Below, one piece after another: positions 3,465-62,340 of a stretch of 64,000 nt of DNA (positions are counted from its first letter, which is position 1; the number at the start of each line of letters is the position of its first letter). This DNA is from Bryocella elongata. Its GTDB lineage: Bacteria; Acidobacteriota; Terriglobia; Terriglobales; Acidobacteriaceae. The stretch lies in assembly GCF_900108185.1 (NCBI RefSeq), contig NZ_FNVA01000005.1:310001-374000 (forward strand), given 5' to 3'. The notes beneath the pieces are model-generated. The model ran no database searches. It was not told the DNA's origin and worked only from the letters and a program-made list of their open reading frames with translations. A program made the position numbers and the translations under genes.

Positions 3465-3492
3465 AGGGATTAGGGATCAGGGATTAGGGATT
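3465..3492. repeat. Tandem heptad array AGGGATT x4 after queD
   Basis: Four head-to-tail 7-base units start 3 nt after the queD stop. Three are AGGGATT and the second is AGGGATC. The array therefore contains the telomere-like word TTAGGG, but this is an interior chromosomal site. It lies in a convergent junction with the DUF1440 gene. A reverse-complement fragment (TCCCTGA) occurs about 25 nt further on, so partial folding is possible. It belongs to the heptad arrays described in the findings. Confidence 0.85.
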
Positions 3493-3521
3493 CGGTTCTC
3501 TGGTTTGTCGGTCCCTGATAG

Positions 3522-3562
3522 AAGCCGTGTTTTGGGCGCAGACGCACCACAAAACACTCACG
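3522..3562. terminator. Imperfect bidirectional hairpin between queD and the DUF1440 gene
   Basis: The left arm GCCGTGTTTTG and the right arm CAAAACACTCACGGC pair with a small bulge, giving outer G+C pairs and an inner run of T/A. The genes on both sides converge here, so the structure could end both transcripts. The U-tract is not canonical, hence modest confidence. Confidence 0.4.
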
Positions 3563-3571
3563 GCGCCGGCG

Positions 3572-4042
3572 TTAGTCGATGGCGCGCCGCACCCAGCCGC
3601 GCACCTTTTCGGCGACCACGCCGTAGAGGACGTGCGATGCCATCTCGCTGGTGTGTTCGCGTGGCGTCTGGTCTTCGGCGGCCGCTCCCAGATCCAGAGC
3701 GGGCAGCGCCGCCTCGTGGGTCAGGGTCATCAGCGCCATGCCGAAGGCAGCGCCTTCCTTGGCAGTCGCCGCGGGATAGTACTCGGCAAGCGCTCCATAC
3801 GCTGCGCCGGCAGCCGCACCGAAAGCCCAGTGAAGGCTCTCGGCAGCGACGTGCTTGGTCTGCGGGGAAAGTTTGTGGCCTGCGATGCGCTCGGCGAGCT
3901 CCTCGGGTGGCTCAGGCTCGCCATGCGTACGCGGAGGGTAGAACCGTTCGGCCAGGCTTTTGGCCGCAGTGGCGACGACGCCAGCGACAAGACCGGCGAT
4001 GAGAGCTTTGGAGAGCGAGCGGGTTGGCTTTTTATCTTGCAC
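3572..4042 (-). CDS. DUF1440/YagU-like membrane protein
   Basis: The 156-residue product matches the pattern of the YagU/DUF1440 family of small inner-membrane proteins. An N-terminal glycine/alanine-rich helix (SKALIAGLVAGVVATAAKS) is followed by a proline-rich stretch with two negatively charged runs. Then come helical segments around FGAAAGAAYGALAEY and FGMALMTLTHEAALP, and a C-terminal SHVLYGVVAEKVR. Escherichia coli YagU has been linked to acid resistance; the molecular role is unknown. The start is GTG at 4042 with a weak ribosome site. It converges with queD. Confidence 0.7.
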   Translation of the reverse strand: MQDKKPTRSLSKALIAGLVAGVVATAAKSLAERFYPPRTHGEPEPPEELAERIAGHKLSPQTKHVAAESLHWAFGAAAGAAYGALAEYYPAATAKEGAAFGMALMTLTHEAALPALDLGAAAEDQTPREHTSEMASHVLYGVVAEKVRGWVRRAID

Positions 4043-4093
4043 GATGAGTGAGATGCGCGCCCGGGCCGGGCGCGCTGCATGGACGTGTCAGGG

Positions 4094-4504
4094 CTAAAAC
4101 GTGTAGCCGGGACGCTTGCGACGACCGCCGGTCATGGTCGGGTCGTCCTCGTCCTCGGAGTCCGGGTCATCGTCGTCGTAGTCGACGTAGTCGTCCTCCT
4201 CGTCTTCATCTTCGTCCTCATCCTCGTCGTCTTCGTCGTCCTCATCCTCATCGTCTTCGAACTCATCGTCCTCCTCGTCGAGCTCATCGTCGTCGTCTTC
4301 GAGGTCGTCGTCCTCATCTTCTTCGTCCTCTTCCTCCTCGTCCTCATCTTCGTCATACGCGGCAAAGAGGGGCTCGGCTGCTTCGGTGGGGGGCAGGAAA
4401 GAGGTCTGGACGGGATCTGTGGACTGGGCGGTCGAGTTGCCGGCGAGGGCCAGCAGCAGTGGGCTGGTCAGGTCCAAGGCGGTGAGCGGCTGGATGGAAA
4501 ACAT
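4094..4504 (-). CDS. Extremely acidic low-complexity protein, unknown function
   Basis: This 136-residue protein has three parts. Residues 1-50 are ordinary and mildly hydrophobic. Residues 51-121 contain 63 Asp/Glu out of 71, broken only by two Leu, one Phe, two Tyr, one Val, one Pro and one Ser. Residues 122-136 form a short basic tail containing GGRRKRPGYTF. The start is well supported: on the minus strand a GAGGAGA ribosome site sits about 6 nt before the ATG at 4504. The long open frames on the opposite strand are by-products of the repetitive GAN/GAR codons. I recognise no family. An acidic histone-chaperone-like, cation-binding or DNA-mimic role is possible but is inference. Confidence 0.7.
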   Translation of the reverse strand: MFSIQPLTALDLTSPLLLALAGNSTAQSTDPVQTSFLPPTEAAEPLFAAYDEDEDEEEEDEEDEDDDLEDDDDELDEEDDEFEDDEDEDDEDDEDEDEDEDEEDDYVDYDDDDPDSEDEDDPTMTGGRRKRPGYTF

Positions 4505-4607
4505 CGATCGTCTCCTCGTGGGAACTTCCCACGTGCGGGTTTAGATGCGGCGGGGTTCGATCCGCCCCAATATTATTGCCTGAGTTTAGGCCAACTGTTG
4601 TGACGAC

Positions 4608-6104
4608 TTACGGCTGAAACTTTGCAAGCTGTTCCTGGGTGGGCCGAGGGGAGATCAGACTGACAACGATCAGTCCAGCGAGTGAGGCGACCAGCGCCGG
4701 AAGAATCGCATCCTGCTGGCCGATCGCCGGAGGCAAGAGCGGCCCCAGGCGATCCCAGGCAAGGGTTATGACGGTGCCAGCGGCGATGCTGGCGACAGCA
4801 CCCCCGGCCGTGGCTCGCTTCCAGAAGAACGCGGCCAGGATCACGGGTGTCAGCGCCGCAGAGTAAATCGTATAAGCCTGCAGGCTCTTTTCCAGCACGC
4901 TGGTGACCGCGATTGATTGCACCAGCGCCCATATCCCTAGCAGGATGACCATCGCACGGGAGACCATCAGCACCTCGCCGTTCGAAGCCTCTGGGCGAAG
5001 ATAGCGCACGAAGATGTCGTTGACCAAATTCGTCGCTGGGGAAAACAGGTAGTTGTTGGCCGTGGAGACCACTTTGGCAAAGATGGCCCCCACCAGCAGG
5101 GCTCCGAGCAGCTGCAGCGCGGGGCTTCCGCTAAAGGCGTGGGTCGCGGTGTAGGCCAGGATCTCGCGCGGCCTCTGGGCCACCTCACCGGTGCGGAAGA
5201 TCGCTGATCCGACCACCGCCACGCCCACGATGACGCTCTCCAGGATGACCGTGCCGACGATCCAGCCCAGCGTCGCCCGGGTCGCGTCCTTCTCGCTCTT
5301 GGCGGAGAAGAACTTCTGGTACATCGACTGGTTGCCCAACATGAGCAGGCAGGTGGGCAGGAAGATTGCGAGCGCGGATTTGACCTGCTCGTGGGTCCCG
5401 TCGGGAAGCGTTCGCGTATAGCTGGAGATCGGCCGCAGGTCGCCGAAGAGCTGGAAGTGCGTTGCAGGCAGCGCCGCCTGCACGCCGCTCCAACCGCCGG
5501 CCAGGTGGATGAGCACCGGCAGCGCCACGATCAGCGTCACGCTGGCGAGCATGCCGATCACGACATCCATGTATGCGACCGAGCCCATACCCGCGATCGC
5601 GGTGAAGAGGATCACGAAGCCAGCGAGGATGTAGCGCCCGTGGATTGCGGTCACCTGGGGAAAGATCAGGTGCAGGATGTCTCCGCCGCCGATGAACTGG
5701 TAGCTGGTAATGGCCGTGTAGGTGAACAGCACCGCGATGACGCCCAGCACCCGGGCCGTCTGGTTGTAGCGCGACTCCAGCAGGTCGGGGATGGTGAACT
5801 GCGCGAACTTCCGTGCTCGCGGCGCGATGAAGTAGATCAGCGCCAGCCCCGCCCAACCGCCGGCGGCCTGCCACAGCGCCGCAAAGCCATGCTTATAGGC
5901 GTTCTCCGCTCCGCCCAGCAGCGAGCCGGAGCCGATCCAGCTGGAAAGCAGCGTGAACACCAGCACGAAGGCAGGCAGCGACCGGCCCGCCACGAGGTAG
6001 TCCGCCTTCGTCTTGGTCTTGCCAAGGCGCGCGAGAGACACGCCCAGCAGCGTGACAACGATGAGACCAAGAACGATGACGTAGAGAGTCATGGGTGGGG
6101 CCAT
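4608..6104 (-). CDS. Sodium:solute symporter family protein (SSS/SLC5)
   Basis: The 498-residue protein is hydrophobic throughout, with about 13 helices typical of the SSS family. Family-like stretches include KTKADYLVAGRSLP near residues 30-45 (start of TM2 in PutP/PanF-type carriers), SSWIGSGSLLGGAENAY and the helix around GMGSVAYMDVVIGM. It should import a small solute by coupling to sodium. The substrate cannot be read from sequence. ATG at 6104 and ATG at 6092 are both possible starts. It is divergent from the exported hydrolase at 6193, and the 88-nt gap must hold both promoters. Confidence 0.88.
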   Translation of the reverse strand: MAPPMTLYVIVLGLIVVTLLGVSLARLGKTKTKADYLVAGRSLPAFVLVFTLLSSWIGSGSLLGGAENAYKHGFAALWQAAGGWAGLALIYFIAPRARKFAQFTIPDLLESRYNQTARVLGVIAVLFTYTAITSYQFIGGGDILHLIFPQVTAIHGRYILAGFVILFTAIAGMGSVAYMDVVIGMLASVTLIVALPVLIHLAGGWSGVQAALPATHFQLFGDLRPISSYTRTLPDGTHEQVKSALAIFLPTCLLMLGNQSMYQKFFSAKSEKDATRATLGWIVGTVILESVIVGVAVVGSAIFRTGEVAQRPREILAYTATHAFSGSPALQLLGALLVGAIFAKVVSTANNYLFSPATNLVNDIFVRYLRPEASNGEVLMVSRAMVILLGIWALVQSIAVTSVLEKSLQAYTIYSAALTPVILAAFFWKRATAGGAVASIAAGTVITLAWDRLGPLLPPAIGQQDAILPALVASLAGLIVVSLISPRPTQEQLAKFQP

Positions 6105-6192
6105 TCTAGAGCATTTCCCTGCCCACCCACCGTGATCGCCCCGGCAGATTGATCCAAGTGAAGATGGCCGCTTCCGGAGCTATGCTTCCTGT

Positions 6193-7527
6193 ATGCGAAT
6201 CGTGCGTTGGTTGGCTGCGGTGAGTGTCATGGCGGTGGGGATCGGATGCGCCGCGCAGGACTCTCAGGACGCCTGGGAGGCCTCGATGCACGATGTCCTC
6301 CATACGCCATATGACAGCAAGCTTCCCGCGCTGGACGCGAAGGTGTGGTCGACCTTTTCTCCGACGCCTGGCGTGCTGGCAGACCGCGTGACCTACAGCA
6401 CGGCATCGGAAATGCTGGTCCCGGCAATCGTTTACCGTCCGGATCCGAAGGTGACGAAGTACAAGGGCCAGCTGCCGGGCATCGTCATCGTGAACGGCCA
6501 CGGCTCGGACAAGTTTGGCTGGTACGCGTTTTACTCGGGCATGATGTTCGCCAAGGCCGGCGCGGTCGTCATCACGTACGACCCCATCGGCGAAGGGGAG
6601 CGCAACGCCCGCAAGGCCAGCATGGAGAACCCTTCGCCTCACGATGCCGATGTGACGCCGCCGGCTCCCATTCCCCATGACGATTGGGGACAGAGGCTAG
6701 CCGGGCTGATGCAGGTGGACCTCGCGCAGGCGATCAGCTACCTGCGTGCGCAGCCTGAGGTCGATCCGAAGCGCATCGGCGTGGCCGGCTACAGCATGGG
6801 CGCCTTCATCACCGGTCTGGCGGCTGCGATGGACTACTACGACCACCGCATCGCGGCCGTGGTGCTCTCGGGTGGCGGAACGTATGACGATGCCGCAGGC
6901 GGCTACTTCGACGTCAACAGGAACCCCTGCCAAGCGCCGCCGTATCGTGCGCTGCTGCCGTGGCTGAAGATCAAGGGCGAACCTGCGCGTGGCGAGATCC
7001 TCTATGCGCTCATCGCGAGCTCTCACCATCCCATGCTGATCATGAATGGCGACAACGACACGGTGATGGACATCCCGCATCACAACGCGGCGTGGTTCCA
7101 GGAGCTGCACGATCGCACGATGAAGGACTTCGGCCTGCCGCAGAGCGCGATGTTTCAGGCGGTCTTTTATCCGGGCATCAGCCATCGCACGTCGTGGGTC
7201 AATCGCGATGGTGTGGAGTGGCTCAACAGCCAGCTGCACTTTCCGTTCTGGAAGACCAACGCGATCATCGAAGCGCAGGGCACCACGCACGTCAGCACAT
7301 GGATCACCGCCAACCATGTTGCGATCTCGAAGAACTACTTCCGCGAAGATCGTGAAGGGGGCCTCGATGCTGTCGGCACGGGCCTGCCGGGCATCCCACG
7401 CGGAGATCTGATGGTGTTGCCGGATGCCGATTGGCAGCGTGTGAAAGATCGGCTCACCTATGAGGCATGGGCCGCAAAGACCATGGCCGTGGAGCAGGAG
7501 GCTGCCGAGAAGCTGCGCGTACACTAA
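6193..7527 (+). CDS. Exported alpha/beta-hydrolase (esterase/dienelactone-hydrolase-like)
   Basis: This 444-residue protein has an N-terminal signal sequence (MRIVRWLAAVSVMAVGIGCAA). A Cys near residue 19 could make it a lipoprotein, though the lipobox is not canonical. The hydrolase core shows VIVNGHGSDKFG, the nucleophile elbow GYSMG (Ser201), an acid region around NGDNDTVMD and a late histidine in GISHRTSW. These fit an acetyl-ester or dienelactone-type hydrolase acting outside the cytoplasm; the substrate is unknown. The C-terminal 100 residues extend beyond the core. The next gene starts 5 nt after the stop, so the two secreted enzymes form a pair. Confidence 0.85.
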   Translation: MRIVRWLAAVSVMAVGIGCAAQDSQDAWEASMHDVLHTPYDSKLPALDAKVWSTFSPTPGVLADRVTYSTASEMLVPAIVYRPDPKVTKYKGQLPGIVIVNGHGSDKFGWYAFYSGMMFAKAGAVVITYDPIGEGERNARKASMENPSPHDADVTPPAPIPHDDWGQRLAGLMQVDLAQAISYLRAQPEVDPKRIGVAGYSMGAFITGLAAAMDYYDHRIAAVVLSGGGTYDDAAGGYFDVNRNPCQAPPYRALLPWLKIKGEPARGEILYALIASSHHPMLIMNGDNDTVMDIPHHNAAWFQELHDRTMKDFGLPQSAMFQAVFYPGISHRTSWVNRDGVEWLNSQLHFPFWKTNAIIEAQGTTHVSTWITANHVAISKNYFREDREGGLDAVGTGLPGIPRGDLMVLPDADWQRVKDRLTYEAWAAKTMAVEQEAAEKLRVH

Positions 7528-7532
7528 ACCTC

Positions 7533-9422: not shown

Positions 9423-9457
9423 AGTGGGTAGAGGTCAGTGAGTAGGGAGTAGAAAAA
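9423..9457. repeat. Purine-rich heptad-type repeat (copy of the 19745 repeat)
   Basis: This 35-nt stretch starts 3 nt after the M61 stop and fills the convergent gap before the YihY gene. It matches 32 of 35 bases of the segment at 19745-19779, which also follows a stop codon directly. It contains GAGTAGG/GAGTAGA units at 7-base spacing. Only one orientation is present here. Confidence 0.75.
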
Positions 9458-11613: not shown

Positions 11614-12585
11614 GTGCTGAGCAATTCCTGGATCAGTCAACGCAAGGATAACTGGAGTCGGCTCGAGACGCTCGCCCGGCAGGCCGAGACCTTCGGCGTG
11701 CGCTCGCTGTCGCACCCGGAGCTTCGCGATTTCGGCCTGCTTTACCGGCAGGCTGCGGCGGATCTCTCGGCGGCACGCGCAGACCGCGGCTCGCGAGCCA
11801 TCGAGCAATATCTCAACCAGATCGTCAGCCGCGCGCATAACTATGTCTACTCCGGGCAGCGATTCTCGGCGCTCACCGTATGGCGATTCCTCGTGCACGG
11901 CTACCCCCGCGTCATCCGCCGCTTCAATGGCTACGTTTATGCGGCGATTGCCATCACGCTGCTGACGGCGGCCCTGGGCGCCATCATCACCATGGTGCGT
12001 CCGGAGTTCGGTGTCGCCTTCTTCGGCGCAGAACGCATCGCCGACCTCGACAAGCACAAGATGTGGACGGACAGCATCCTCAGCGTGAAGCCGGAAGAGT
12101 CCTCCAGCATCATGACCAACAACATCATGGTGTGCTTCCTTACGTTCATTGGTGGCATCACGGGCGGCCTCTTCACGTTGTACTCGCTGTTCAACAACGG
12201 GCTGATGCTGGGCGTCATCGCGGTCATCTGCGCGCAGCATCACATGGCACTCAGCCTGTGGAGCTTCATCGCCGCACACGGCGCGCTGGAACTGCCGTCG
12301 ATCATGTTCGCGGGCGCGGCCGGGCTACGCCTCGGTGCGGGCATTCTCTTCCCAGGCAACCTGCGCCGCCGCGATTCGATGGCGATCGCTGGCTCCGACG
12401 CCGTGCAGATCGTCAGCGGCACGATCCCGCTGCTCATCATCGCCGGCACGCTGGAGGCTTTTCTCTCTCCGAATCACATCGCTGTGGGCATCAAGTTCGG
12501 GGTGGGCGGCGTGCTGTTCGTCGGGCTTTGCCTGTGGCTGTACCTGGGCGGACGAGCGACTGAGACAGCAAACAGTAGAGCGTAG
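11614..12585 (+). CDS. Stage II sporulation protein M-like (SpoIIM/DUF95) membrane protein
   Basis: About 323 residues from the GTG at 11614 (another GTG at 11593 is possible). The soluble N-terminal ~95 residues include SQRKDNWSRLETL and LYRQAAADL, typical of the long SpoIIM-like proteins of non-sporulating bacteria. The membrane part has FLTFIGGITGGLFTLYSLFNNGLMLG, of which GGITGGLFTLYSL is diagnostic, and SFIAAHGALELPSIMFAGAAG. In Bacillus SpoIIM acts in the DMP engulfment complex; here there is no sporulation context, so the role is unknown and tied to the MoxR cluster. The last codons (TANSRA) are made of the heptad repeat that follows. Confidence 0.88.
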   Translation: MLSNSWISQRKDNWSRLETLARQAETFGVRSLSHPELRDFGLLYRQAAADLSAARADRGSRAIEQYLNQIVSRAHNYVYSGQRFSALTVWRFLVHGYPRVIRRFNGYVYAAIAITLLTAALGAIITMVRPEFGVAFFGAERIADLDKHKMWTDSILSVKPEESSSIMTNNIMVCFLTFIGGITGGLFTLYSLFNNGLMLGVIAVICAQHHMALSLWSFIAAHGALELPSIMFAGAAGLRLGAGILFPGNLRRRDSMAIAGSDAVQIVSGTIPLLIIAGTLEAFLSPNHIAVGIKFGVGGVLFVGLCLWLYLGGRATETANSRA

Positions 12586-12642
12586 ACAGCAGACAAGCAA
12601 TCGAAGGCTCTTGCCTGCACACTACTGTCTAACCTCTACTGT
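12572..12642. repeat. Heptad-type inverted repeat across the SpoIIM-like/DUF58 convergent junction
   Basis: The left arm starts at 12572 with ACAGTAGAG, continues as TAGACAG, and spans the SpoIIM-like stop codon. The right arm ends at 12642 and reads ACAGTAGAG then TAGACAG on the minus strand. Over 21 bases 18 match, so the arms can pair into a hairpin with a loop of about 30 nt. Each gene is thus followed by CAGTAGA-type heptads in its own sense. Confidence 0.8.
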
Positions 12643-18971: not shown

Positions 18972-19739
18972 ATGCGACTTAGCTTCGTCATACCGGCCTA
19001 CAACGAAGAGGCCTACCTCCCTGCCTGCCTGGAATCGATTCTGGCTCAGATCACGCCCGAACTCCGGGACGTCACGGAGATCATCGTCGTGAACAACGCG
19101 AGCACGGACCGGACCCGCGAGGTCGCCCTGCGCTATCCGGGAGTCAAGCTGGTCGATGAGCCGCGCAAGGGCCTCACCTATGCCCGCCAGGCGGGCTTCG
19201 CCGCGTCTACTGGCGACCTCATCGCCAACATTGACTCCGACTCGCGCCTCACTCCGGGCTGGCTCACCAAGGTGATCGCCGCCTTTGAGGAAGCTCCGAA
19301 GAATGCCGACCGGCCGCTGGTCTCCTTCTCCGGCCCGTTCCTCTACTTCGATCTCACGCCCTCGCAGCGGGTCTTTGTGCATGGCTTCTACATGCTGGCC
19401 TGGTGCACCTATGCGCTGAACCGCTACGTGCTCCGCGTTGGTTCCATGGTGCAGGGCGGCAACTTCGTGGTCACGCGAAAGGGGCTCGCCTCCATCGGCG
19501 GCTTCAACACCGACATCACCTTCTACGGCGAGGACACGGACATCGCCCGCCGCCTCAACGACGTCGGCGAGGTCCGCTTCACCTTCGAGCTGAAGATGTT
19601 CTCCTCCGCCCGCCGCCTGCGCAAGGAAGGCATGTTCACGATGGCTGCGCGTTACTCCATCAACTACCTCTGGACCACCTTCATGAAGCGCCCGTTCACC
19701 GAGACCCACATCGACATCCGCGAACAGACGCAGGAGTAG
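18972..19739 (+). CDS. Glycosyltransferase family 2 protein
   Basis: The 255-residue protein opens with LSFVIPAYNEEAYLPACLESI, the GT-A nucleotide-binding start of family 2. A VVNNASTDRTREVA motif follows and the metal-binding region NIDSDSRLTPGWL (DxD-like) sits near residues 80-92. FYGEDTDIARRL near 190 is the usual ED acceptor-side motif. It transfers a sugar from a nucleotide donor in the cytoplasm; donor and acceptor are unknown. A strong intrinsic terminator follows at 19787. Confidence 0.9.
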   Translation: MRLSFVIPAYNEEAYLPACLESILAQITPELRDVTEIIVVNNASTDRTREVALRYPGVKLVDEPRKGLTYARQAGFAASTGDLIANIDSDSRLTPGWLTKVIAAFEEAPKNADRPLVSFSGPFLYFDLTPSQRVFVHGFYMLAWCTYALNRYVLRVGSMVQGGNFVVTRKGLASIGGFNTDITFYGEDTDIARRLNDVGEVRFTFELKMFSSARRLRKEGMFTMAARYSINYLWTTFMKRPFTETHIDIREQTQE

Positions 19740-19786
19740 AGGGAAGTGGGTAGAGGGCAGTGAGTAGAGAGTAGAGAAAGACTGAG

Positions 19787-19819
19787 GCCGCCGGGAAGAC
19801 TCCCGGCGGCTTCTGTTTT
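19787..19819 (+). terminator. Intrinsic terminator after the GT2 gene
   Basis: A 10-bp perfect stem (GCCGCCGGGA, 19787-19796, with 19801-19810) has a 4-nt loop and is followed by TTCTGTTTT. This is a canonical rho-independent terminator for the plus-strand glycosyltransferase gene. Confidence 0.88.
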
Positions 19820-19854
19820 CGGCGCTTACTTTGATTTCGTTTCGTGGGATGAAC

Positions 19855-19892
19855 TGCAGAAAGAGTAAGGCCACCGGCGGTTGCCGGTGGCC
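19855..19892 (-). terminator. Intrinsic terminator after the PHP-like gene
   Basis: A 10-bp perfect stem (GGCCACCGGC, 19869-19878, with 19883-19892) has a 4-nt loop. On the minus strand it is followed by TTACTCTTTCTGC, a U-rich tail, so it should end the PHP-like transcript. Confidence 0.75.
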
Positions 19893-19980
19893 AGGTGATG
19901 CAGGTCGATTCCCAGATTCCCAGACTCCAGATTCCAGATTCGATCTCTACTCTCTACTCACTGCCCTCTGCTCACTTCTC

Positions 19981-21135
19981 TTAGATCCACTCCATCTCGT
20001 GCGTCGCGTCGTTCACGCGGGGGAAGGCGAGGCTCAGCGGCGCCGAGACCGGTCCCTTGCCGAAGAGCCGGGTGATACCAATCGCCGTTCGTACCGCGAG
20101 CGGGGGGCGGCCATCGGCCCACAGCGAGTGCAGCGTCTGCATCTGGCCATTCGCATCCGGGTGGTACACGCGCTCGTCCCAACGCTGCCAGCCGGGCATG
20201 AACTCCGGAAAGTTGGTCACAGCGTTCAGCGTCGACCGGACGATCCGCTGCTCCCAGCGCTCCTGGTACTGATTCATGATGTGCAGGTGGCTGCGCTTCT
20301 CCACGCGAATCTCTTCGACGAACTCCGTGAACGTGGCGGCGCGGGTCAGGTTGAGCACCGCGTTCGGCTCCAGGCCATGGCGGTCGCCGCCCGAGATCAG
20401 CAGCGTGTTCGTGTCGCGCGCCAGGCGGATCACCTCGCGGTTCTCCTGTGCGTGACGAAGTCCGTTCAGCTCCACGGCGTGGATGGTGTCGCCGGCGCGC
20501 TGCAGGAAGCGCAGCACCTCGGAGGTGTGCAGGCAGTCACCCACCTTGTGCAGATCCCACAGCGGGTGGTTGAACACGATGAGAATCTGCGGTGATTCGT
20601 GCAGCTCGCGCAGCATGCTCAGCAGGATCTCGTCGTTGGGCTGCGCCGTGTAGGCGGCGAAGCGCTGCATCCAGGTTGTAGCGTCGGCGGAAGGCACGTT
20701 GTGGATGCCGAGGTGGAAGATGCTCTGGCCGAACGGGGCCGACCACTCCACCGACATCGGGATGTGGCGCGAACCGGGCAGCGTGCGCAGGGTGAAGCAG
20801 CCATCCATCGTGTCATGGTCGGTGATCGAGACCAGCGAGCGGAAGCCAAGCTTCTCGATCTGCCCGCACTCCAGGTCCCACGCCATGCGCGGCTGCAGCG
20901 GCGGACGCCAGTTGGCGCGATCGAAGTCCAGCTCGATCCCGAACTTGTTGCGCACATGCTTGCGGTAGTGGCTCTCGATGTTCTTTACGCCAGGGATCCA
21001 CTGGCTCAGCGCGTGGATGAAGTTCAATGTCTCCTCCGACACGCTGGTGTGGCTGTGCAGAGAGACGCCCGTGGTCAGTTCGCCGCCTGCCAGCGGCTCG
21101 TCCCAGTTGTTCGTGATTCTGGACGTCAGTTGCAT
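19981..21135 (-). CDS. PHP-superfamily metal-dependent hydrolase-like protein
   Basis: The 384-residue protein carries metal-ligand patterns of the PHP superfamily: GVSLHSHTSVSE near residue 30, SITDHDTMDG near ~118, VFNHPLWDL near ~205 and ISGGDRHGLE near ~265. Such proteins are usually phosphoesterases acting on nucleotides or small phosphates. It is longer than the YciV-type phosphoesterases, and the C-terminal 100 residues have no recognised domain. ATG 21135 is chosen because the upstream extension is not conserved-looking. It is convergent with the GT2 gene. Confidence 0.72.
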   Translation of the reverse strand: MQLTSRITNNWDEPLAGGELTTGVSLHSHTSVSEETLNFIHALSQWIPGVKNIESHYRKHVRNKFGIELDFDRANWRPPLQPRMAWDLECGQIEKLGFRSLVSITDHDTMDGCFTLRTLPGSRHIPMSVEWSAPFGQSIFHLGIHNVPSADATTWMQRFAAYTAQPNDEILLSMLRELHESPQILIVFNHPLWDLHKVGDCLHTSEVLRFLQRAGDTIHAVELNGLRHAQENREVIRLARDTNTLLISGGDRHGLEPNAVLNLTRAATFTEFVEEIRVEKRSHLHIMNQYQERWEQRIVRSTLNAVTNFPEFMPGWQRWDERVYHPDANGQMQTLHSLWADGRPPLAVRTAIGITRLFGKGPVSAPLSLAFPRVNDATHEMEWI

Positions 21136-27314: not shown

Positions 27315-27350
27315 GGCAGACAGTAGACAGGCTGACAGCAGAGGGCACGA
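27314..27350. repeat. Heptad-type repeat after the formate-dehydrogenase-like gene
   Basis: The 40-nt gap between two co-directional genes is filled by CAGACAG, TAGACAG and CAGAGGG-like units at 7-8 base spacing, sense with the upstream gene. It shares TAGACAG with the arrays at 12572 and 41151. No inverted partner is seen here. Confidence 0.6.
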
Positions 27351-40931: not shown

Positions 40932-41150
40932 ATGCCGCGCGAGATCGACTGGACCGACGTACTGGAGATTGGGATTCAACTGCTGGAGATGTTCCCCGAC
41001 ACCGATCCCTACACCGTGCGCTTCACGGACCTGCACAAGTGGGTGACGCAGCTGCCCGGCTTCGTTGGCGACCCCATGAAGTCCACCGAGAAGGGCCTGG
41101 AAGCCATCCAGCTCGCCTGGCATGAAGAGTACGAGGAAGCGAAAGGATAA
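40932..41150 (+). CDS. iscX: IscX-like Fe-S assembly adaptor
   Basis: The 72-residue acidic protein matches the IscX (YfhJ) pattern: IDWTDVLEIGIQLLEMFPDTDPYTVRFTDLHKWV and a C-terminal LEAIQLAWHEEYEE helix. IscX binds IscS and modulates cysteine desulfurase and iron delivery in Fe-S cluster assembly. No isc or suf genes lie nearby, so it is a stand-alone copy. A GGGAG ribosome site precedes the ATG. The gene is followed directly by a tandem 14-base repeat. Confidence 0.85.
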   Translation: MPREIDWTDVLEIGIQLLEMFPDTDPYTVRFTDLHKWVTQLPGFVGDPMKSTEKGLEAIQLAWHEEYEEAKG

Positions 41151-41218
41151 GGCGAGACAGTAGAGGCGAGACAGTAGACAGTTGCGTGGGGCCGAGCGAC
41201 CCACGCACTGTCTACTGT
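41151..41218. repeat. Tandem 14-mer and hairpin between iscX and murJ
   Basis: The 14-base unit GGCGAGACAGTAGA occurs twice without a gap at 41151-41164 and 41165-41178, directly after the iscX stop. It consists of two heptads. The following arm 41171-41190 pairs with 41200-41218 (one bulged base, 19 pairs, 9-nt loop). The right arm is the sequence just downstream of the murJ stop on the minus strand. The structure is well suited to end both convergent transcripts. Confidence 0.88.
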
Positions 41219-41221
41219 TTA

Positions 41222-42832
41222 CTATCTGCCTCTCCGAAGTAGCTGCTTCGGCAGCTTCGACCCTGACGCGAGCAGCACCACCAGCGCGACTAGACCCCAC
41301 GCTACGGACCCTGCCGCGATGATCACGAGCCCGCCGCGATGGCTCGTCGTTGCCGGCAGCGCATGTGCCGTGGCATAAGCCGCGCCGAATGACAGTACCG
41401 CCGCCAGCGCTGCGCGGCCGAGCTCGCCAAACTCCAGCTGCGCCAGCGACACGAGCCGCTTCTTGTGCAGCAGGATCGCCAGCGTGCCGGTCTGCACCAG
41501 GATGCCCAGGTCGGAAGCGATCGCAAGGCCTGTGAGATCCAGCGTGTGAAACAGCGCCCAGTAGATCGGCGCCGAGAGCACCGTCACAGTCGTGCCGATG
41601 ATCGCAGGTGTCTTCGTGTCGCTGGCGGCGTAGAACGCCCGCGCGTAGATGCCCTGAATTGCCCAGATGCTCAGCGTGAACGCGAGCAGGATAAACAGGT
41701 GCGTTGTGGTGGACGCATTCGCGCGGCTGAAGGCGCCGCGGCGGAACTGGTCCATCAGCCATGGCGCCAGCGCGATCATCCACGCTGAAACGAGAAAGCC
41801 CACAGAGGCCAGCCGCGACACCGCCCGCGTCACCGACGCCGAGAACTCCCACTCCAGCTTGCGCTGGTACAGCGATGCGAAGAAGGGAAGCGACGCTGCT
41901 CCGGCGGCGGCTCCGATCACGTTGAACGGAGCATTGAAAAGGTCCTTCGCGTTGCCGATCAGGGTGATGCCGCCTTCGCGCGCGGAAGCGAAGTAGTTCA
42001 GAAACTGCCGGTCGAACATGACCAGCGAAACGCCGATCATCAGCGGCAACGAGAGCCGCAGCCATTCGTGGAAGGCCGGATCGCGGAAGTCGATATGCAG
42101 TGAGTACCGGAGCCCGGAGCGCAGCGCGCCGATGCCGTTCAGCAGCGCATTGCCGAAGAGCATGCCCGCCGTCACGCCCACCGCCAGCGACACCACCCCC
42201 AGCTGCTTGTGCAGCAGGAACGCCCCGCCGATGATGCCGACGTTATAGAGAAGCGGAGCGACGGCCTGGTAGATGAAGATCTTGCGCACCTGCAACCGCG
42301 ATCCCATCACGCTGCCGAAGAAGAAGAAGATCTGCCCGGGCAGGATGATTCGCGTCATCGTCGTCGCAAGGCTGCTGCGCAGCGCATCGCCACGGAAACC
42401 CTCGTTCGCGAGCCAGATGTACTGCGGCGCGAAGATCTCCGCCAACAGCACGCCCACACCCAGCACGACGAGCATGTTGTTCAGGATCACCGAAAGCGCA
42501 TGGTCCGCGCCGCGCTCATCGCCCGCCGTGAGGTACCGGTTCAGGATCGTGATGACGGAGATTGAGGCCGCTCCACCGATGAGGAAGTAGGCCAGCAAGT
42601 CCGGCAACGCAAAGGCTGCGCGATACGCGTCCTGCTGCGCTCCCGCGCCAAACAGGTAGTTCACATACGCAGTCCGCACCAGGCCCAGAACGCCGGAGAG
42701 CAGGGCGCTCGCCATCAGCAGCATCGCGGCCGAACCGGCCGTGTGGGTCTTCGTTGTCTTCGCGGTCGTGGCCGCGGGGGGCGTCTGAATTTCGCTCACG
42801 TCGTCTTCAAGGCAAAGGGTTCCGCGCGGCAC
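41222..42832 (-). CDS. murJ: Lipid II flippase MurJ (MviN family)
   Basis: The ~530-residue protein has about 14 membrane helices of the MOP superfamily. The N-terminal signature MLLMASALLSGVLGLVRTAY and GAGAQQDAYRAAFALPDLLAYFLIGGA are typical of MviN/MurJ. MurJ flips lipid II for peptidoglycan synthesis. The start is GTG at 42832, or GTG at 42799 (VSEIQT...), which may be more natural; neither has a strong ribosome site. The last codons run into the heptad-type repeat shared with iscX. Confidence 0.9.
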   Translation of the reverse strand: MPRGTLCLEDDVSEIQTPPAATTAKTTKTHTAGSAAMLLMASALLSGVLGLVRTAYVNYLFGAGAQQDAYRAAFALPDLLAYFLIGGAASISVITILNRYLTAGDERGADHALSVILNNMLVVLGVGVLLAEIFAPQYIWLANEGFRGDALRSSLATTMTRIILPGQIFFFFGSVMGSRLQVRKIFIYQAVAPLLYNVGIIGGAFLLHKQLGVVSLAVGVTAGMLFGNALLNGIGALRSGLRYSLHIDFRDPAFHEWLRLSLPLMIGVSLVMFDRQFLNYFASAREGGITLIGNAKDLFNAPFNVIGAAAGAASLPFFASLYQRKLEWEFSASVTRAVSRLASVGFLVSAWMIALAPWLMDQFRRGAFSRANASTTTHLFILLAFTLSIWAIQGIYARAFYAASDTKTPAIIGTTVTVLSAPIYWALFHTLDLTGLAIASDLGILVQTGTLAILLHKKRLVSLAQLEFGELGRAALAAVLSFGAAYATAHALPATTSHRGGLVIIAAGSVAWGLVALVVLLASGSKLPKQLLRRGR

Positions 42833-43773: not shown

Positions 43774-45276
43774 ATGCCGAGCCAGAACATCTATGATCGC
43801 GTGATCTATCCGGCAGCCACGCATCCGGATACGCATCCCCGCCGCCTTGCAGCGATAGCCAGGCTGCATGGTATTCCCGCGGTTGCCCCGGACAACTGTC
43901 GTGTGCTGGAGATCGCCTGCAACACTGGTGCGAACCTGATCCCGATGGCCTATGCTCTGCCGGGCAGCCAGTTCACCGGCTTTGACCTTGCCGGGGGAGC
44001 CATTGCTGAGGGGCAGCGGCGCATCGAGTCTCTGGGGCTTCGCAACATCCGTCTCCTGCAGGCCGACCTGATGGAGGCCGACCAACTCCCCGAGCTGCAG
44101 GGCGAGTTCGACTACATCATCGCGCACGGGCTCTACAGCTGGGTTCCTGACGCCGTCCGCGACCGCCTGCTTGGCTTCTGCAACGAGCGCCTCTCGCCGC
44201 ACGGCATCGCATTCATCAGCTACGCGGCGCTTCCCGGTGGGTATCTCCGCCTTTTGAGCCGGGAGATTCTCCTCGCCGTTGAAGGCCATGGGACGGAGAA
44301 CGTTCCTGAGAAGGGGCTCGATGTCCTCCGCTTCATCGCGGCGTCGCGTCCGGAAGGTGACGGCTTTCGCGTCCTGCTGGAGCGCGAGATCCATGGGATG
44401 GAGAGGCGCGGCCCAGCCGTCGTCTTCCACGATGAGATGGCCTCCGAGTACAAGCCCGTCAGCTTTCAGGACTTCTTCCTCCACGCGCAGGCCCATACGC
44501 TGCAGCACTTCAGTGATGCCCAGATTCCTCCGCCGACCGACCCCTGCTATCGCGCCGAGGTTCGGAAGAAGATTCAGGAGCTCGTCGGCGATGATTCGCT
44601 CGCCAACGAGCAGGCGCTCGATTTCGTCCGGATGCGGTCCTACCGCGAGTCACTGCTTTGCCACGCGGGCGTACCGTTCCAGGTCGATCCGCAGCTGGAG
44701 CCGATGCGTCATCTCTGGCTGTCCTCGAAGGCTTCCGTGGAGCGTCGCAGTGACGGGGTGTGCGTGTTCTCACTGCCTGACCTGGTGCGATTCGAGGCGC
44801 AGGATCCTGGCCTCATCGCACTGCTGGGTGGTCTTGCGGATCGCTTTCCGGAGGCGGTTCCGTTCGCCGAAATCACCGGACCGATCGTGGCGCAGGGCCT
44901 CGCATCAGAGACGCAGCTGCTTACCCTGCTACTGCAACTCGTCATCGCCCGCTTTATCACTCTTGAGGCGTCTCCTGTGCCTGTGCCTGTGCCTGTGCCT
45001 GTGGCTCATGGCGTCCCTGATCGGCCGAAACTAAGCCCGTTGTGCCTGGTGTTCCTGAATGGCGGCGGTCTCATCGTCACACCGTTGCACGCGACGCTGA
45101 GTACCGAAGAGCCGCTGGTATTCAAGCTCCTCCAGCTCCTCGATGGCACGCGCGATCATGCCGACCTGGCCCGCGAGCTCGCGGCGAGGAGTCCAGAGAT
45201 CCCGCCCGGAGACATTGAGGGAGGCCTCAACGGCATGCTCCAACTCTTCTATCGCGCCGGGGCGCTGGAGGCCTGA
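43774..45276 (+). CDS. SAM-dependent methyltransferase with methyltransferase regulatory domain
   Basis: The 500-residue protein has an N-terminal class I methyltransferase fold with SAM motif I VLEIACNTGANL (about residues 45-56) and the acidic motif II FTGFDLAGGAI. Residues ~220-310 fit the methyltransferase regulatory domain (PF10119-like). The C-terminal third resembles a further regulatory extension. A run of five Pro-Val pairs (residues ~401-410) is encoded by five perfect CCTGTG hexamers. The substrate is unknown. It is divergent from the MerR gene. Confidence 0.85.
   Translation: MPSQNIYDRVIYPAATHPDTHPRRLAAIARLHGIPAVAPDNCRVLEIACNTGANLIPMAYALPGSQFTGFDLAGGAIAEGQRRIESLGLRNIRLLQADLMEADQLPELQGEFDYIIAHGLYSWVPDAVRDRLLGFCNERLSPHGIAFISYAALPGGYLRLLSREILLAVEGHGTENVPEKGLDVLRFIAASRPEGDGFRVLLEREIHGMERRGPAVVFHDEMASEYKPVSFQDFFLHAQAHTLQHFSDAQIPPPTDPCYRAEVRKKIQELVGDDSLANEQALDFVRMRSYRESLLCHAGVPFQVDPQLEPMRHLWLSSKASVERRSDGVCVFSLPDLVRFEAQDPGLIALLGGLADRFPEAVPFAEITGPIVAQGLASETQLLTLLLQLVIARFITLEASPVPVPVPVPVAHGVPDRPKLSPLCLVFLNGGGLIVTPLHATLSTEEPLVFKLLQLLDGTRDHADLARELAARSPEIPPGDIEGGLNGMLQLFYRAGALEA
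44974..45003 (+). repeat. Hexanucleotide tandem repeat (CCTGTG)5 inside the methyltransferase gene
   Basis: Five perfect CCTGTG units encode a (Pro-Val)5 linker. Copy-number change would add or remove PV pairs without shifting the frame. Confidence 0.95.
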
Positions 45277-46474: not shown

Positions 46475-46560
46475 GAGCAGGGATCAGGGCACAGGTATTG
46501 GGGATTACAAGTCTTGCGAGCGCGCCGCGACAGTCCCTCATCCCTTATCCCTCACTCTTC
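46475..46560. repeat. AGGGATN heptad arrays at the M50/purN convergent junction
   Basis: On plus, CAGGGATCAGGG-type units begin 3 nt after the M50 stop. On minus, AGGGATA, AGGGATG and AGGGACT run across the purN stop codon (46545-46547). Both sides use the same AGGGATN word as the array at 3465, in inverted orientation, so the two 3' ends can partly pair. Confidence 0.75.
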
Positions 46561-56934: not shown

Positions 56935-56966
56935 GCTGTATCGTTGAGGTGAGGACGAATCGCCGC

Positions 56967-57662: not shown

Positions 57663-57708
57663 CAGCGCCGAGATGCATGATCCGAACAGCATCTTGACCG
57701 AAATCGCT

Positions 57709-57741
57709 TTGTTGGGCGGGGCTGAAGCTCCGCCCCAACAA
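57709..57741. terminator. Hairpin between rpiA and the YkgJ-like gene
   Basis: A stem of 8 plus 6 pairs with a single bulged C (57709-57722 with 57727-57741) encloses a TGAA loop. The outer pairs are T/A-rich (TTGTT with AACAA), so a U-tract is partly built in. It lies between convergent genes and may serve both. Confidence 0.6.
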
Positions 57742-57831
57742 AACAGGTCTGCGAATCCCCAGAACGACGGAGCCCTAACCGGCTGCAATTTCCCCGGGCC
57801 ACTTGCGAGCGACAGACCGCGCTCTCCACAG

Positions 57832-58431: not shown

Positions 58432-58566
58432 GTCTGGGTCTCCTTCGGTCAGCGTACTGCAAAACGCGCCAGCGAACGTTTGTCCTGCGCAGGAATGCCG
58501 GCACTGGCCACATGAACAGATGGCAACGTTTGCATCGTTGCGGTGGTCTCGGGCGTCTTTTAACGC

Positions 58567-59454: not shown

Positions 59455-59625
59455 AGCATTCGTCCCAGTCAGCCCAGGAGGGGCCTGGCCGGACCAGCAG
59501 GCCAAAGCTGAAAATTTGCATGAAGAGACCGTTTTCACGAGATCCGGCGATGAGCGGACGGCCCCGTTTGACGACGATTACGGTTACTCTTTATATGGCG
59601 CTCCACGCGTCATGAGGACAGGTGA

Positions 59626-60531
59626 ATGGAACTTGGACTGATCGGACTCGGCAAGATGGGCGGCAACATGGCGGAGCGTCTTCGCCGCGCCGGCCACAAG
59701 GTCGTGGGATTTGATTTTTCAGCCGAAGCGGTACAGCGGCTCAACGATGCGGGCTCCGTGGGTGTGACCACGCTGGAAGACCTCGTAAAGAACCTGCAGG
59801 CGCCTCGCGCCATCTGGATCATGGTGCCCGCCGGCGATCCGGTTGACGAGACCATCGCGAAGCTGAAGCCCATGTGCTCTCAGGGCGACATCTTCATCGA
59901 TGGCGGCAACTCCAACTACAAGGACACGCAGCGCCGTCACGACGAGCTCAAGCCCCAGGGCTTCGAGTTTCTCGATTGCGGGACCTCCGGCGGTATCTGG
60001 GGCATCACCGAGGGCTACTCGATGATGATTGGCGGTGACGACGATGTCGTCGAGCGCCTCCGTCCCATCTTCGAAGCGCTCGCGCCTGCACCCGACAAGG
60101 GCTGGGGACGCGTCGGACCTTCGGGCTCCGGCCACTTCGTCAAGATGATTCACAACGGCATCGAGTACGGCATGATGCAGTCCTATGCCGAAGGCTTCTC
60201 GATCATGAAGGCCAAGAAGGTGCTCGGCCTCGATCTCACGCAGATCTCCGAGATCTGGCGCTATGGTTCGGTCGTTCGCTCGTGGCTGCTGGATCTCACG
60301 GCAGACGCGCTCAAGAAGAACCCGGAGCTGGATGGCCTAGAGGCCTATGTCCCCGATTCCGGCGAAGGTCGTTGGACGGTATACGAGGCGATCGATCTGA
60401 ACGTCTCCGCGCCGGTCATCACAGAGTCGTTGATTCGTCGTCTGCGTTCGCGTGAAGAGAACAACTTCACCGATCGCATGCTCGCCGTCATGCGCAATGA
60501 GTTTGGCGGTCACGCAGTTAAGAAGGCATAG
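59626..60531 (+). CDS. gnd: 6-phosphogluconate dehydrogenase, decarboxylating (short GntZ type)
   Basis: The 301-residue protein has GLIGLGKMGGNMAERL, FIDGGNSNYKDT and the catalytic GPSGSGHFVKMIHNGIEYGMMQ. It is the short class (about 300 residues, GntZ/YqeC-like) rather than the ~470-residue dimeric type. It makes ribulose-5-phosphate and CO2 from 6-phosphogluconate. Its 3' end carries a heptad array and zwf follows 115 nt later. Confidence 0.94.
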   Translation: MELGLIGLGKMGGNMAERLRRAGHKVVGFDFSAEAVQRLNDAGSVGVTTLEDLVKNLQAPRAIWIMVPAGDPVDETIAKLKPMCSQGDIFIDGGNSNYKDTQRRHDELKPQGFEFLDCGTSGGIWGITEGYSMMIGGDDDVVERLRPIFEALAPAPDKGWGRVGPSGSGHFVKMIHNGIEYGMMQSYAEGFSIMKAKKVLGLDLTQISEIWRYGSVVRSWLLDLTADALKKNPELDGLEAYVPDSGEGRWTVYEAIDLNVSAPVITESLIRRLRSREENNFTDRMLAVMRNEFGGHAVKKA

Positions 60532-60536
60532 CAATC

Positions 60537-60634
60537 GCGAGATGCGAGATACGAGTTGCGGGTGAGATGCACGATACGATCGAGGCTCGGCCTCCCTCGC
60601 ATCTCGTCGCCCGCCTCCCGGATACTCGATCTCC
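60537..60634. repeat. GCGAGAT heptads with inverted partner between gnd and zwf
   Basis: GCGAGAT occurs twice in tandem at 60537-60550 and is followed by degenerate units (ACGAGTT, GCGGGTG). An 11-bp perfect inverted copy (CGAGATGCGAG, 60538-60548) lies at 60596-60606 on the other strand. The block fills the co-directional gap. Confidence 0.75.
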
Positions 60635-60646
60635 CAGGAGAACGAA

Positions 60647-62194
60647 ATGGCAACTACCCAAGTGAACGTAAGTCCGGCGGCGCTGGAGCGCAGCCAGCAC
60701 CTCGACCGTCGGCCCGACCCCTGCGTTGTCGTCATCTTCGGCGCATCGGGCGATCTGACCAAGCGCAAGCTTCTCCCCGCTCTGTATCACCTGGAGCAGT
60801 CCGGCTTCCTGCCGGAAGACTTCGCAGTCCTGGGTGTTGCCCGTCGCGATCTCAGCGCGACCTTCGCTGACGACATGAAGGACGGTATCGTCAAGGGCGG
60901 CGGCGTCGAGACCAACGACCCCAACCTCGATCCCTTCATGGAGCGCGTTCAGTACTTCGCCATGAACTTCGATGATGAGGGCGGTTACGCCGGCCTCAAG
61001 AAGAAGCTCGAGGACATGGATGCCCAGTTCAACACCAAGGGCAACCGCCTCTTCTATCTTTCCGTTGCGCCGGAGTACTTCTCCGACATCGTGGGCTTCC
61101 TCGGCAAGCATGGCATGAACAAGCCTGGCGCCGGTGAAAAGCACTGGGTCCGCACCGTCATCGAAAAGCCCTTCGGCCACGACCTCGAGTCGGCCCGCGC
61201 GCTCAGCGATGAAGTCAACAAGGTGTTCGACGAAAGCCAGATCTTCCGCATCGATCACTACCTCGGCAAGGAGACGGTGCAGAACATCCTCGTCTTCCGC
61301 TTCGCCAACGGTATCTTCGAGCCCGTCTGGAATCGCAACTACATCGACCACGTCGAGATCACCGCTGCCGAATCCATCGGCATCGAAGGCCGCGGCCCGT
61401 TCTATGAGCAGGCCGGTGCGCTTCGTGACGTTGTACAGAACCACGTGATGGAAGTGCTGTCCTTCATCGCGATGGAAGCTCCATCTGGCTTCGACGCGGA
61501 TGCCGTCCGCACCGAGAAGGTCAAGGTCTGGCGCTCGATCAAGCCCATCCATCCGGCGGATACGGTGCGTGGCCAATACGGCCCTGGCCTCGTCGATGGC
61601 AAGGCCGTCGTCGGCTATCGCCAGGAAGACCGTGTGCATCCCCGCTCGCAGACCGAGACCTACGCTGCTCTTCGCGTGGAGATCGACAACTGGCGCTGGG
61701 CTGGCGTGCCCATCTACATCCGCGCCGGCAAGCGTATGGCCAAGCGCGTCACCGAGATCACCATCCAGTTCAAGCAGCCGCCGCTCATGCTCTTCAAGGA
61801 CGGCGAAGGCAAGGGTGGCGAAGGCATCAAGCCGAACGTCATCTCCATGCGCATCCAGCCCGATGAAGGTATCGCGCTGCGCTTCGCGGCCAAGGTCCCT
61901 GGCCCGAACATGAGCATGAGCTCGGTGAACATGAACTTCAGCTACGCGGATGCCTTCGGCGCCAGCTCGGCCAACGGCTACGAGCGTCTGCTGCTGGACG
62001 CGATGCTCGGCGACGGTACGCTCTTCGCTCACCGCGACGGCGTCGAAGCCACCTGGGCGCTCATGACCCCGATTCTCCAGGCCTGGGCCAAGGATCCGGT
62101 CAAGGACTTCCCCAACTACGCTGCCGGTACCTGGGGCCCCGTCATGGCCGATGCCATGCTCAAGGCCGACGGTCGCAAGTGGCGCAAGCTGTAA
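60647..62194 (+). CDS. zwf: Glucose-6-phosphate 1-dehydrogenase
   Basis: The 515-residue protein has VVIFGASGDLTKRKLLPALY (cofactor) and the active-site RIDHYLGKETVQN. EKPFGHDL precedes the catalytic region. It oxidises glucose-6-phosphate to 6-phosphogluconolactone and makes NADPH. It is followed by heptad arrays and pgl, then glk. Confidence 0.96.
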   Translation: MATTQVNVSPAALERSQHLDRRPDPCVVVIFGASGDLTKRKLLPALYHLEQSGFLPEDFAVLGVARRDLSATFADDMKDGIVKGGGVETNDPNLDPFMERVQYFAMNFDDEGGYAGLKKKLEDMDAQFNTKGNRLFYLSVAPEYFSDIVGFLGKHGMNKPGAGEKHWVRTVIEKPFGHDLESARALSDEVNKVFDESQIFRIDHYLGKETVQNILVFRFANGIFEPVWNRNYIDHVEITAAESIGIEGRGPFYEQAGALRDVVQNHVMEVLSFIAMEAPSGFDADAVRTEKVKVWRSIKPIHPADTVRGQYGPGLVDGKAVVGYRQEDRVHPRSQTETYAALRVEIDNWRWAGVPIYIRAGKRMAKRVTEITIQFKQPPLMLFKDGEGKGGEGIKPNVISMRIQPDEGIALRFAAKVPGPNMSMSSVNMNFSYADAFGASSANGYERLLLDAMLGDGTLFAHRDGVEATWALMTPILQAWAKDPVKDFPNYAAGTWGPVMADAMLKADGRKWRKL

Positions 62195-62207
62195 GAGACA
62201 GGGTGTA

Positions 62208-62340
62208 GGGCCCAGGGCTCAGGGTTCAGAATTTCGAATCCTGGGCCCAATCCCTTTTTTGCGGTCTCGCATCCAACGACAACTGGCGTCCTCGCCACAA
62301 CGCTGAGCGTTCTGGGCCCTGAGCCCTGAACTCTGGACCC
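62208..62340. repeat. GGGCTCA-type heptad arrays, inverted pair, between zwf and pgl
   Basis: On plus, GGGCCCA, GGGCTCA and GGGTTCA are consecutive heptads (62208-62228). On minus, from 62340 to 62313, GGGTCCA, GAGTTCA, GGGCTCA and GGGCCCA are consecutive heptads. The two blocks share the 12-mer CAGGGCTCAGGG as an inverted repeat. A nearer pairing (62208-62216 with 62240-62248) followed by six T's at 62255-62260 looks like a zwf terminator. Confidence 0.85.

What the first reader, a model, noticed from the sequence alone, without database searches (positions are those of the whole stretch)
3465..62340. Dispersed period-7 repeat arrays at gene 3' ends with site-specific heptads and inverted partners
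Seen: at least eight intergenic sites (3465, 9423, 12572, 19752, 27314, 41151, 46475, 60537/62208) carry short arrays with a 7-base period, starting within a few bases of, or across, a stop codon. They are usually purine-rich in the sense of the upstream gene. The heptad differs per site (AGGGATT, GAGTAGA, CAGTAGA, GCGAGAT, GGGCTCA), yet at most sites a second array lies in inverted orientation, so the RNA can fold. I know of no named family with this behaviour. Because 7 mod 3 is 1, arrays whose heptad contains TAG supply stops in all three frames. Hypotheses: 3'-end protection/termination elements, or slippage- or template-driven repeats.
Basis: partly seen in the sequence, partly recalled or inferred. 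Interest (0 to 1): 0.75.

Follow-up and report, generated by a model that had tools for sequence, protein, structure and literature searches.

The report
Hairpin repeats that change their words
Many gene ends in this soil bacterium and its relatives carry hairpins built from a repeated seven-letter word, and close relatives often keep the hairpin at the same gene end but swap the word on both arms at once, a striking form of fast DNA evolution in an already described class of bacterial repeats.

Summary
In 1.264 Mb (22%) of the genome, strong lag-7 self-similarity between genes is about 25 times commoner than at lags 4, 5, 10 and 11. Arrays favour gene 3' ends, avoid divergent intergenes and often have a word-matched inverted partner. 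In the window, 7 of 9 listed sites reach a score where the count exceeds chance, and 6 of 9 have a significant partner. "No named family" is wrong: heptameric repeats with convergent partners near stop codons were described in Xanthomonas and Nostoc (Rehm 2015).

New here, in an Acidobacteriaceae genus that includes Granulicella mallensis: many words coexist (43 among 68 arrays; also 8-mers), and words turn over while site and pairing persist. Between two genomes at about 97% protein identity, 3 of 6 shared hairpin sites in an unselected 360 kb changed word on both arms, with normal flanks. Against a third genome (about 89%), 4 of 5 shared sites did. The G-rich arm comes first in 51 of 61 hairpins (8 C-first).

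Best reading: self-templating DNA hairpins renewed by slippage and intrastrand template switching, tolerated or used at gene ends. The mechanism is inferred. Tests for terminator replacement and RNA wobble were inconclusive.

The parts
3465..3495 (+). AGGGATT array 3 nt after the stop of a PTPS-domain gene (3084-3461); partner weak
   Evidence: lag-7 score 17.1, partner p 0.052; fold z -4.4; Pfam
9437..9452 (+). weak GAGTAGA-like array after the stop of a peptidase M61 gene (ends 9419); no partner
   Evidence: score 6.7, partner p 0.146; marginal
12565..12639 (+). CAGTAGA-type hairpin overlapping the 3' end of a SpoIIM-domain gene (ends 12585); convergent intergene
   Evidence: hairpin 12575-12639; partner p 0.002; fold z -4.8
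19738..19981 (.). GAGTAGA hairpin: left arm 19738-19777, right arm 19944-19981, filling a convergent intergene from stop to stop
   Evidence: partner score 32; RNA MFE -143 kcal/mol, z -11.6
19784..19892 (.). two GC-rich hairpins nested in the loop of the GAGTAGA hairpin (about 19784-19819, followed by T; and about 19869-19892)
   Evidence: structure; sequence; coordinates counted by eye
19907..19941 (-). GGGAATCT array in the same loop that switches from an 8-nt to a 7-nt period
27318..27330 (+). short CAGTAGA array between co-directional genes; no partner
   Evidence: score 6.0, partner p 0.94; marginal
41150..41223 (+). CAGTAGA hairpin (left arm from 41171, right arm 41207-41223) after an iron-sulphur assembly gene, reaching the stop of the convergent gene
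   Evidence: partner p 0.002; fold z -6.1
46475..46552 (.). AGGGATN arms (left from 46475, right 46534-46552) between convergent genes; imperfect
   Evidence: right arm score 9.7, partner p 0.018; fold z +0.2
60537..60606 (+). GAGATGC hairpin between a 6-phosphogluconate-dehydrogenase-like gene and zwf (G6PD)
   Evidence: partner p 0.004; fold z -1.6
62200..62341 (+). AGGGCTC hairpin (arms 62200-62239 and 62312-62341) filling the zwf to 6-phosphogluconolactonase-like intergene
   Evidence: partner p 0.002; fold z -5.3

Best explanation
These are self-templating intergenic hairpin repeats. Replication slippage multiplies a 7-nt (sometimes 8-nt) unit. Intrastrand template switching (quasipalindrome correction) copies one arm onto the other, so that a new word spreads within an array and across both arms. 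Sites persist because an existing hairpin seeds its own renewal, and because gene 3' ends tolerate it, or use it as a bidirectional 3'-end hairpin, whereas promoters do not. Shown here: period 7, 3'-end bias, paired arms, site persistence with word change, ordinary flanks, G-rich-arm-first order. Inferred: the two copying processes and any 3'-end function.
For: Arms of one intergene match each other rather than other intergenes: 14 of 57 arrays have a strong own inverted partner, against 14 of 855 comparisons with other heptad intergenes, 2 of 855 with the rest, and 3 of 57 for direct copies. In the unselected 360 kb of G002/G023 (100 intergene pairs) a hairpin is in both at 6 sites, in one at 6, in neither at 88 (Fisher 5e-6). 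Three of the 6 have another word on both arms: stem score per base 0.81 within a genome, 0.42 across genomes; at same-word sites the cross score stays 0.76-0.90. Flanks of the three are 93-98% identical, baseline 94.9%. Two of the three keep a recognisable loop (0 and 1 of 200 shuffles as good), which argues against wholesale replacement. One same-word site differs by 21 nt = 3 units (site 32). Template switching can create and maintain hairpins (PMC8794818, abstract) and acts on quasipalindromes in E. coli (PMC7202029, abstract and start of introduction). G-U and A-C mismatches are about equally common in sense stems (43 against 38), as DNA-level copying predicts.
Against: No template-switch event was caught in the act. 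The wobble test has low power: canonical terminators in the same DNA show 17 G-U against 10 A-C, not significant (p 0.25) and not different from the heptad hairpins (p 0.50). Overall intergene identity is not significantly lower at hairpin sites (G002/G023 medians 0.70 against 0.85, p 0.35). Own stems are high partly because hairpins were chosen by stem score. The third word-changed sister site (64) has no loop similarity, and neither has any of the four word-changed G010 sites, so replacement is possible there. Template switching alone does not predict the G-rich-arm-first order. At G010-90, G023 has lost the intergene shared by G010 and G002 and carries a heptad hairpin instead, which looks like replacement.
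Confidence: 0.5

Rival explanations
1. RNA-level selection: the hairpins are 3'-end elements (U-tract-less bidirectional terminators or barriers to 3' exonucleases). Structure is selected, sequence is free, and arms covary by compensation.
For: 3'-end preference and scarcity between divergent genes (arrays in 6 of 144 divergent, 39 of 458 co-directional, 12 of 117 convergent intergenes; 2 of 38 heptad hairpins of G000 and G002 are divergent, Fisher 0.02); very strong folding at some sites; a G-rich 5' arm and C-rich 3' arm give a weak RNA-DNA hybrid when the 3' arm is transcribed (hybrid energetics recalled, no call), and this holds on both strands.
Against: Five or more T in the next 8 nt after only 5 and 2 of 61 hairpins on the two strands; canonical terminator-like sites in convergent intergenes: 4 of 13 with hairpin, 8 of 13 with array only, 95 of 192 with neither (all heptad against none p 0.84); co-directional 7 of 44, 15 of 55, 151 of 779; no G-U excess (low power); period 7 and shared words are not needed for a terminator.
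Confidence: 0.27
2. Mobile hairpin elements: families of small inverted-repeat elements with heptad-array ends insert after stop codons and replace one another.
For: Words are shared by many loci and genomes: the AAGTGNN array is in 7 of 8 genus genomes tested. One insertion or deletion lies directly after a stop codon (G010-59) and one gain replaces an old intergene (G010-90).
Against: The loops of different loci that I compared by eye do not look alike; no target duplication seen at G010-59 (by eye); words grade into each other at one site (AGGGATT/AGGAAAC in G010-27); loops are kept across word change at 2 of 3 sister sites.
Confidence: 0.15
3. Ordinary simple sequence repeats with G-quadruplex or triplex propensity, without further biology, as proposed for the Xanthomonas and Nostoc repeats.
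For: AGGGATT-type words have the G-tracts; same placement and convergent pairing in Xanthomonas.
Against: Many words lack GGG tracts; by inspection only 2 of 9 window sites (3465, 62200) have four GGG tracts in an arm.
Confidence: 0.08

Closest known systems
G-rich heptameric repeats of Xanthomonas (GGGAATC) and Nostoc (GGGGAYT), Rehm et al. 2015, PMC4692102 (abstract, introduction, discussion, results parts 1-2 of 3 and the homology section read)
   Same: [quoted passage not shown] only a few in Nostoc), sites conserved between relatives
   Different: That study analysed one G-tract word type per genome; here many words per genome, many without G-tracts, also 8-mers, and words that differ at orthologous sites
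TAACTGA direct repeats of Beggiatoaceae, PMC4679880 (abstract and passages read)
   Same: dispersed intergenic heptamers, patchy across phyla
   Different: one word, mostly just upstream of start codons, one inverted pair only
Quasipalindrome template-switch mutation, PMC7202029 and PMC8794818 (abstracts and start of introductions read)
   Same: a DNA-level process that makes or restores inverted-repeat arms
   Different: not tied to heptads or gene ends; not observed in this organism
Cyanobacterial short tandemly repeated repetitive (STRR) heptanucleotides
   Same: 7-nt tandem repeats between genes (name recalled; Rehm's introduction mentions three tandem heptanucleotides in Calothrix)
   Different: not compared here; the one search that named STRR found no held paper
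Perfect inverted repeats downstream of bacterial stop codons, PMC13155455 (passages read)
   Same: inverted repeats enriched just after stop codons
   Different: a survey of perfect repeats of all kinds, read as rho-independent terminators; no heptad structure in the passages read

Membership tests
G-rich heptameric repeats (Rehm 2015) | tandem 7-nt unit, dispersed, enriched between genes | tested here: met
   51 intergenic lag-7 segments at score 10 against 2 each for lags 4, 5, 10, 11
[quoted passage not shown]
   18 of 46 co-directional within 10 nt against 7.5 expected (no excess in convergent, 6 of 15 against 5.5); 0.20 arrays per kb divergent, 0.63 co-directional, 0.98 convergent
G-rich heptameric repeats (Rehm 2015) | convergent inverted partner (G-rich strands facing) | tested here: met
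   61 hairpins among 152 arrays, G-first 51, C-first 8, ties 2; partner 3' of the array 24 of 111, 5' of it 0 of 111
G-rich heptameric repeats (Rehm 2015) | G-tract word able to form a G-quadruplex | tested here: not met
Intrinsic transcription terminators | GC stem followed by a U-tract | tested here: not met
   5 and 2 of 61 hairpins have 5 or more T in the next 8 nt on the two strands
Intrinsic transcription terminators | termination of transcription at the site | not testable with these tools
   needs Term-seq
REP/MITE-type mobile palindromes | conserved sequence among copies, defined ends or target duplication | tested here: inconclusive
   words shared but loops differ by eye; no duplication seen at the one clean insertion or deletion
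Quasipalindrome template-switch products | arms become more alike within a lineage | tested here: inconclusive
   own stems 0.81 against cross stems 0.42 at 3 word-changed sister sites; direct events not observed

The most novel reading that the evidence does not exclude
Structure is inherited while sequence is not: a genus-wide, possibly bacteria-wide, class of gene-end hairpins is rewritten as a unit, both arms at once, by a dedicated or strongly biased copying process (G-rich strand first), drawing on a shared vocabulary of 7- and 8-letter words.
Probability: 0.2. Interest if true: 0.85.

Novelty: new variant of a known kind. Interest (0 to 1): 0.58.

Why it matters
Covariation of two arms is usually read as selection on RNA structure. 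Here is a natural system in which whole stems change word in concert over short times, probably by DNA copying, so it can test how much covariation in noncoding RNA comes from mutation rather than selection. Granulicella mallensis MP5ACTX8, a cultured type strain, carries it. The G-rich-arm-first order, seen across phyla for one word, is unexplained and is a clue to mechanism.

Tried and rejected
Stop-codon supply as common function: rejected, several words lack stops (inspection). G-quadruplex as common cause: rejected for words without GGG. Replacement of canonical terminators: tested, not significant. RNA selection by G-U excess: 43 against 38, but the positive control on canonical terminators was not significant either (17 against 10), so the test decides nothing. 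Lower identity of hairpin intergenes in general: not significant. Import by recombination at word-changed sites: flanks are ordinary. Integron attC sites (imperfect hairpins at gene 3' ends) came to mind from memory; not tested, judged unlikely because these elements are dispersed and 7-periodic. Intrastrand triplex repeats (PMC4666352, abstract only): considered, not tested. The literature searches listed no paper whose title or abstract start tells of multi-word heptad hairpins or word switching in Acidobacteriota; beyond the papers named in this report only the listings were seen, and 'not in print' is claimed for these searches of the held library alone. Genes were called with a simple in-house ORF scorer, so single boundaries may be wrong.
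Full report
What was checked. The window is C14:310001-374000 of a 5.67 Mb genome in 16 contigs. One relative (G023) has the same G6PD coordinates as the genome that holds a Granulicella mallensis X5P3 record, and another (G002) is a single contig of 6,237,577 bp, the size published for G. mallensis MP5ACTX8 (PMC3910553, passages). Both are told as same genus as the window. So the window comes from Acidobacteriaceae (lineage), in the genus-level group of G. mallensis; it is another species (G6PD 85-86% identical).

Observation. All nine listed places hold lag-7 segments. Seven reach a score (7 or more) at which the window's count exceeds chance as a set (7 against 1.8); 9423 and 27314 do not. 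Six of nine have a significant inverted partner. Folding is extreme at 19740-19980: a stem of about 38 bp, z -11.6, enclosing two further GC-rich hairpins. The other eight range from z -6.1 to +0.4. In 1.264 Mb (window plus 60 sampled stretches), intergenic lag-7 segments at score 10 number 51, against 2 each for lags 4, 5, 10 and 11, 8 for lag 13 and 19 for lag 8; 14 of 22 period-8 rows at score 9 are AGCRGAAC-type octamers. Multiples of three are raised mainly inside genes, as expected of coding DNA; lags 14 and 16 are harmonics. One lag-7 row is a run of 30 C, not a heptad.

Placement. Of 719 intergenes of 25-600 nt, heptad arrays occur in 39 of 458 co-directional, 12 of 117 convergent and 6 of 144 divergent. 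Co-directional arrays lie within 10 nt of the upstream stop in 18 of 46 cases against 7.5 expected; at the next start there is no excess (8 against 7.4), and convergent intergenes show none (6 of 15 against 5.5). All 15 convergent arrays have more G than C in the sense of the nearer stop; of 46 co-directional arrays 23 do.

Words and pairing. 68 arrays gave 43 distinct words; word pairs within one mismatch are commoner (6.2%) than after shuffling letters within words (2.3%). Strong inverted partners are specific to the own intergene: 14 of 57, against 14 of 855 and 2 of 855 in the two controls; direct copies 3 of 57. With a looser cut, 61 hairpins among 152 arrays were found in eight genomes of the genus: G-rich arm first 51, C-rich first 8, ties 2; co-directional 46, convergent 13, divergent 2. 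Leaving out G010 and G023, which share sites with G002: 36 to 8 with one tie, and 32 of 34 among strongly skewed hairpins. Non-heptad inverted repeats of G000 and G002 show no such order (42 to 41; Fisher 0.002 against 30 to 7 for their heptad hairpins), though among the strongly skewed controls G-first also leads (15 to 6). C-first heptad cases are mostly words with nearly equal G and C.

Spread. In the 113 stretches held, a strong inverted partner lies 3' of the G-rich array in 24 of 111 testable arrays and 5' in 0 of 111; control windows reached that score at 4. Of 120 arrays 48 lie within 30 nt of an upstream ORF end on the G-rich strand, and 38 were called inside an ORF (rough ORF calls, relatedness not corrected). 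In Acidobacteriota a three-unit pattern with up to one mismatch occurs in 32 of 297 sampled genomes. The word AAGTGNN occurs in 7 of 8 genus genomes tested, and the nearby inverted pairs that I read by eye in the cut list all run + then -. Heptad excess is clear in G002, G023 and G010 and visible in G007; it is weak in G006 and G017 and absent in G016.

Turnover. At the zwf locus several relatives carry hairpins of different words in the same two intergenes, and others have none. G002 and G023 share 175 reciprocal best genes at a median of 97.4% protein identity. In 360 kb chosen only by synteny around zwf, 100 orthologous intergene pairs give heptad hairpins in both at 6, in one at 6, in neither at 88 (Fisher 5e-6). 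Adding three segments gives 137 pairs with 8, 6 and 123, but those segments were fetched because both genomes hold AAGTG arrays there, so their two same-word sites are not an unbiased draw. Of the 6 unselected sites three keep the word and three have another word on both arms: AGGGATT to AGGGYYC-type words twice, GTGTAGA/GATAGAG to AAGTGRY once. Some sites counted as 'one only' (14, 28, 30) show the same word in both genomes by eye and fell under the cut in one; another (61) shows a changed word. Own stems of the three score 0.81 per base, cross stems 0.42. Their flanks are 93-98% identical, like the baseline of 94.9%. Loops are recognisably homologous at two of the three. Against G010 (about 89% identity) five distinct sites are shared; four changed word (compared with G002 and G023 alike) and one, tested with G023 only, kept it. 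Sites are shared more than chance allows (Fisher 0.008 and 0.0002). Alignments are, including one whole-intergene replacement (G010-90) and one clean insertion or deletion after a stop (G010-59). Against this reading: identity over whole intergenes does not differ significantly between hairpin and other intergenes (p 0.35, 0.18 and 0.49).

Mechanism. The data fit slippage plus intrastrand template switching: units multiply, arms are copied onto each other, and an existing hairpin seeds its own renewal. Template switching is known to make and restore hairpins (PMC8794818 abstract; PMC7202029 abstract and start of introduction), and RNA-DNA hybrids are reported to initiate such events in yeast (PMC3820800 abstract), which might link it to transcribed, G-rich gene ends; that link is inference. 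The polarity is unexplained. One functional reading is that a pyrimidine-rich 3' arm makes a weak RNA-DNA hybrid and so favours release of the transcript on either strand. Direct tests here gave no support: few T-tracts, no significant shortage of canonical terminators, no wobble excess, though the last test lacks power.

Comparison. Rehm et al. described the same placement, convergent pairs in Xanthomonas and site conservation (83% of Xcc repeats in the same context in Xac) for one G-rich word type. The present case adds many words, non-G-tract words, octamers and word switching. It is therefore a new variant of a known kind, with a testable and unusual evolutionary behaviour.

Noticed in passing
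L004, L006, L032, L053, L055, L058: Octamer arrays AGCRGAAC, up to 98 nt, some with an inverted partner and some next to heptad arrays; the period is 7 or 8, not strictly 7.
   Followed up: partly
G002/G023 intergenes (sites 7, 21, 34, 53): A longer dispersed palindromic element with conserved sequence (CTGGTTGTCATTCCGAGCG ... CGCTCGGAATGACAACCAG), unlike the heptad hairpins; looks REP/MITE-like.
   Followed up: no
window:44974-45003: Five perfect copies of the hexamer CCTGTG inside the ORF 43774-45276.
   Followed up: no
window:4166-4356: Short-period tandem repeats (GTCGTC-like) inside the minus-strand ORF 4094-4504.
   Followed up: no
L007:11662-11691: A run of 30 C (on the + strand) 7 nt from a gene boundary, in an intergene that also holds a CGGAGAA-type heptad array.
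   Followed up: no
window:19907-19941: An array that changes from period 8 (GGGAATCT) to period 7 (GAATCTG) within 35 nt.
   Followed up: no
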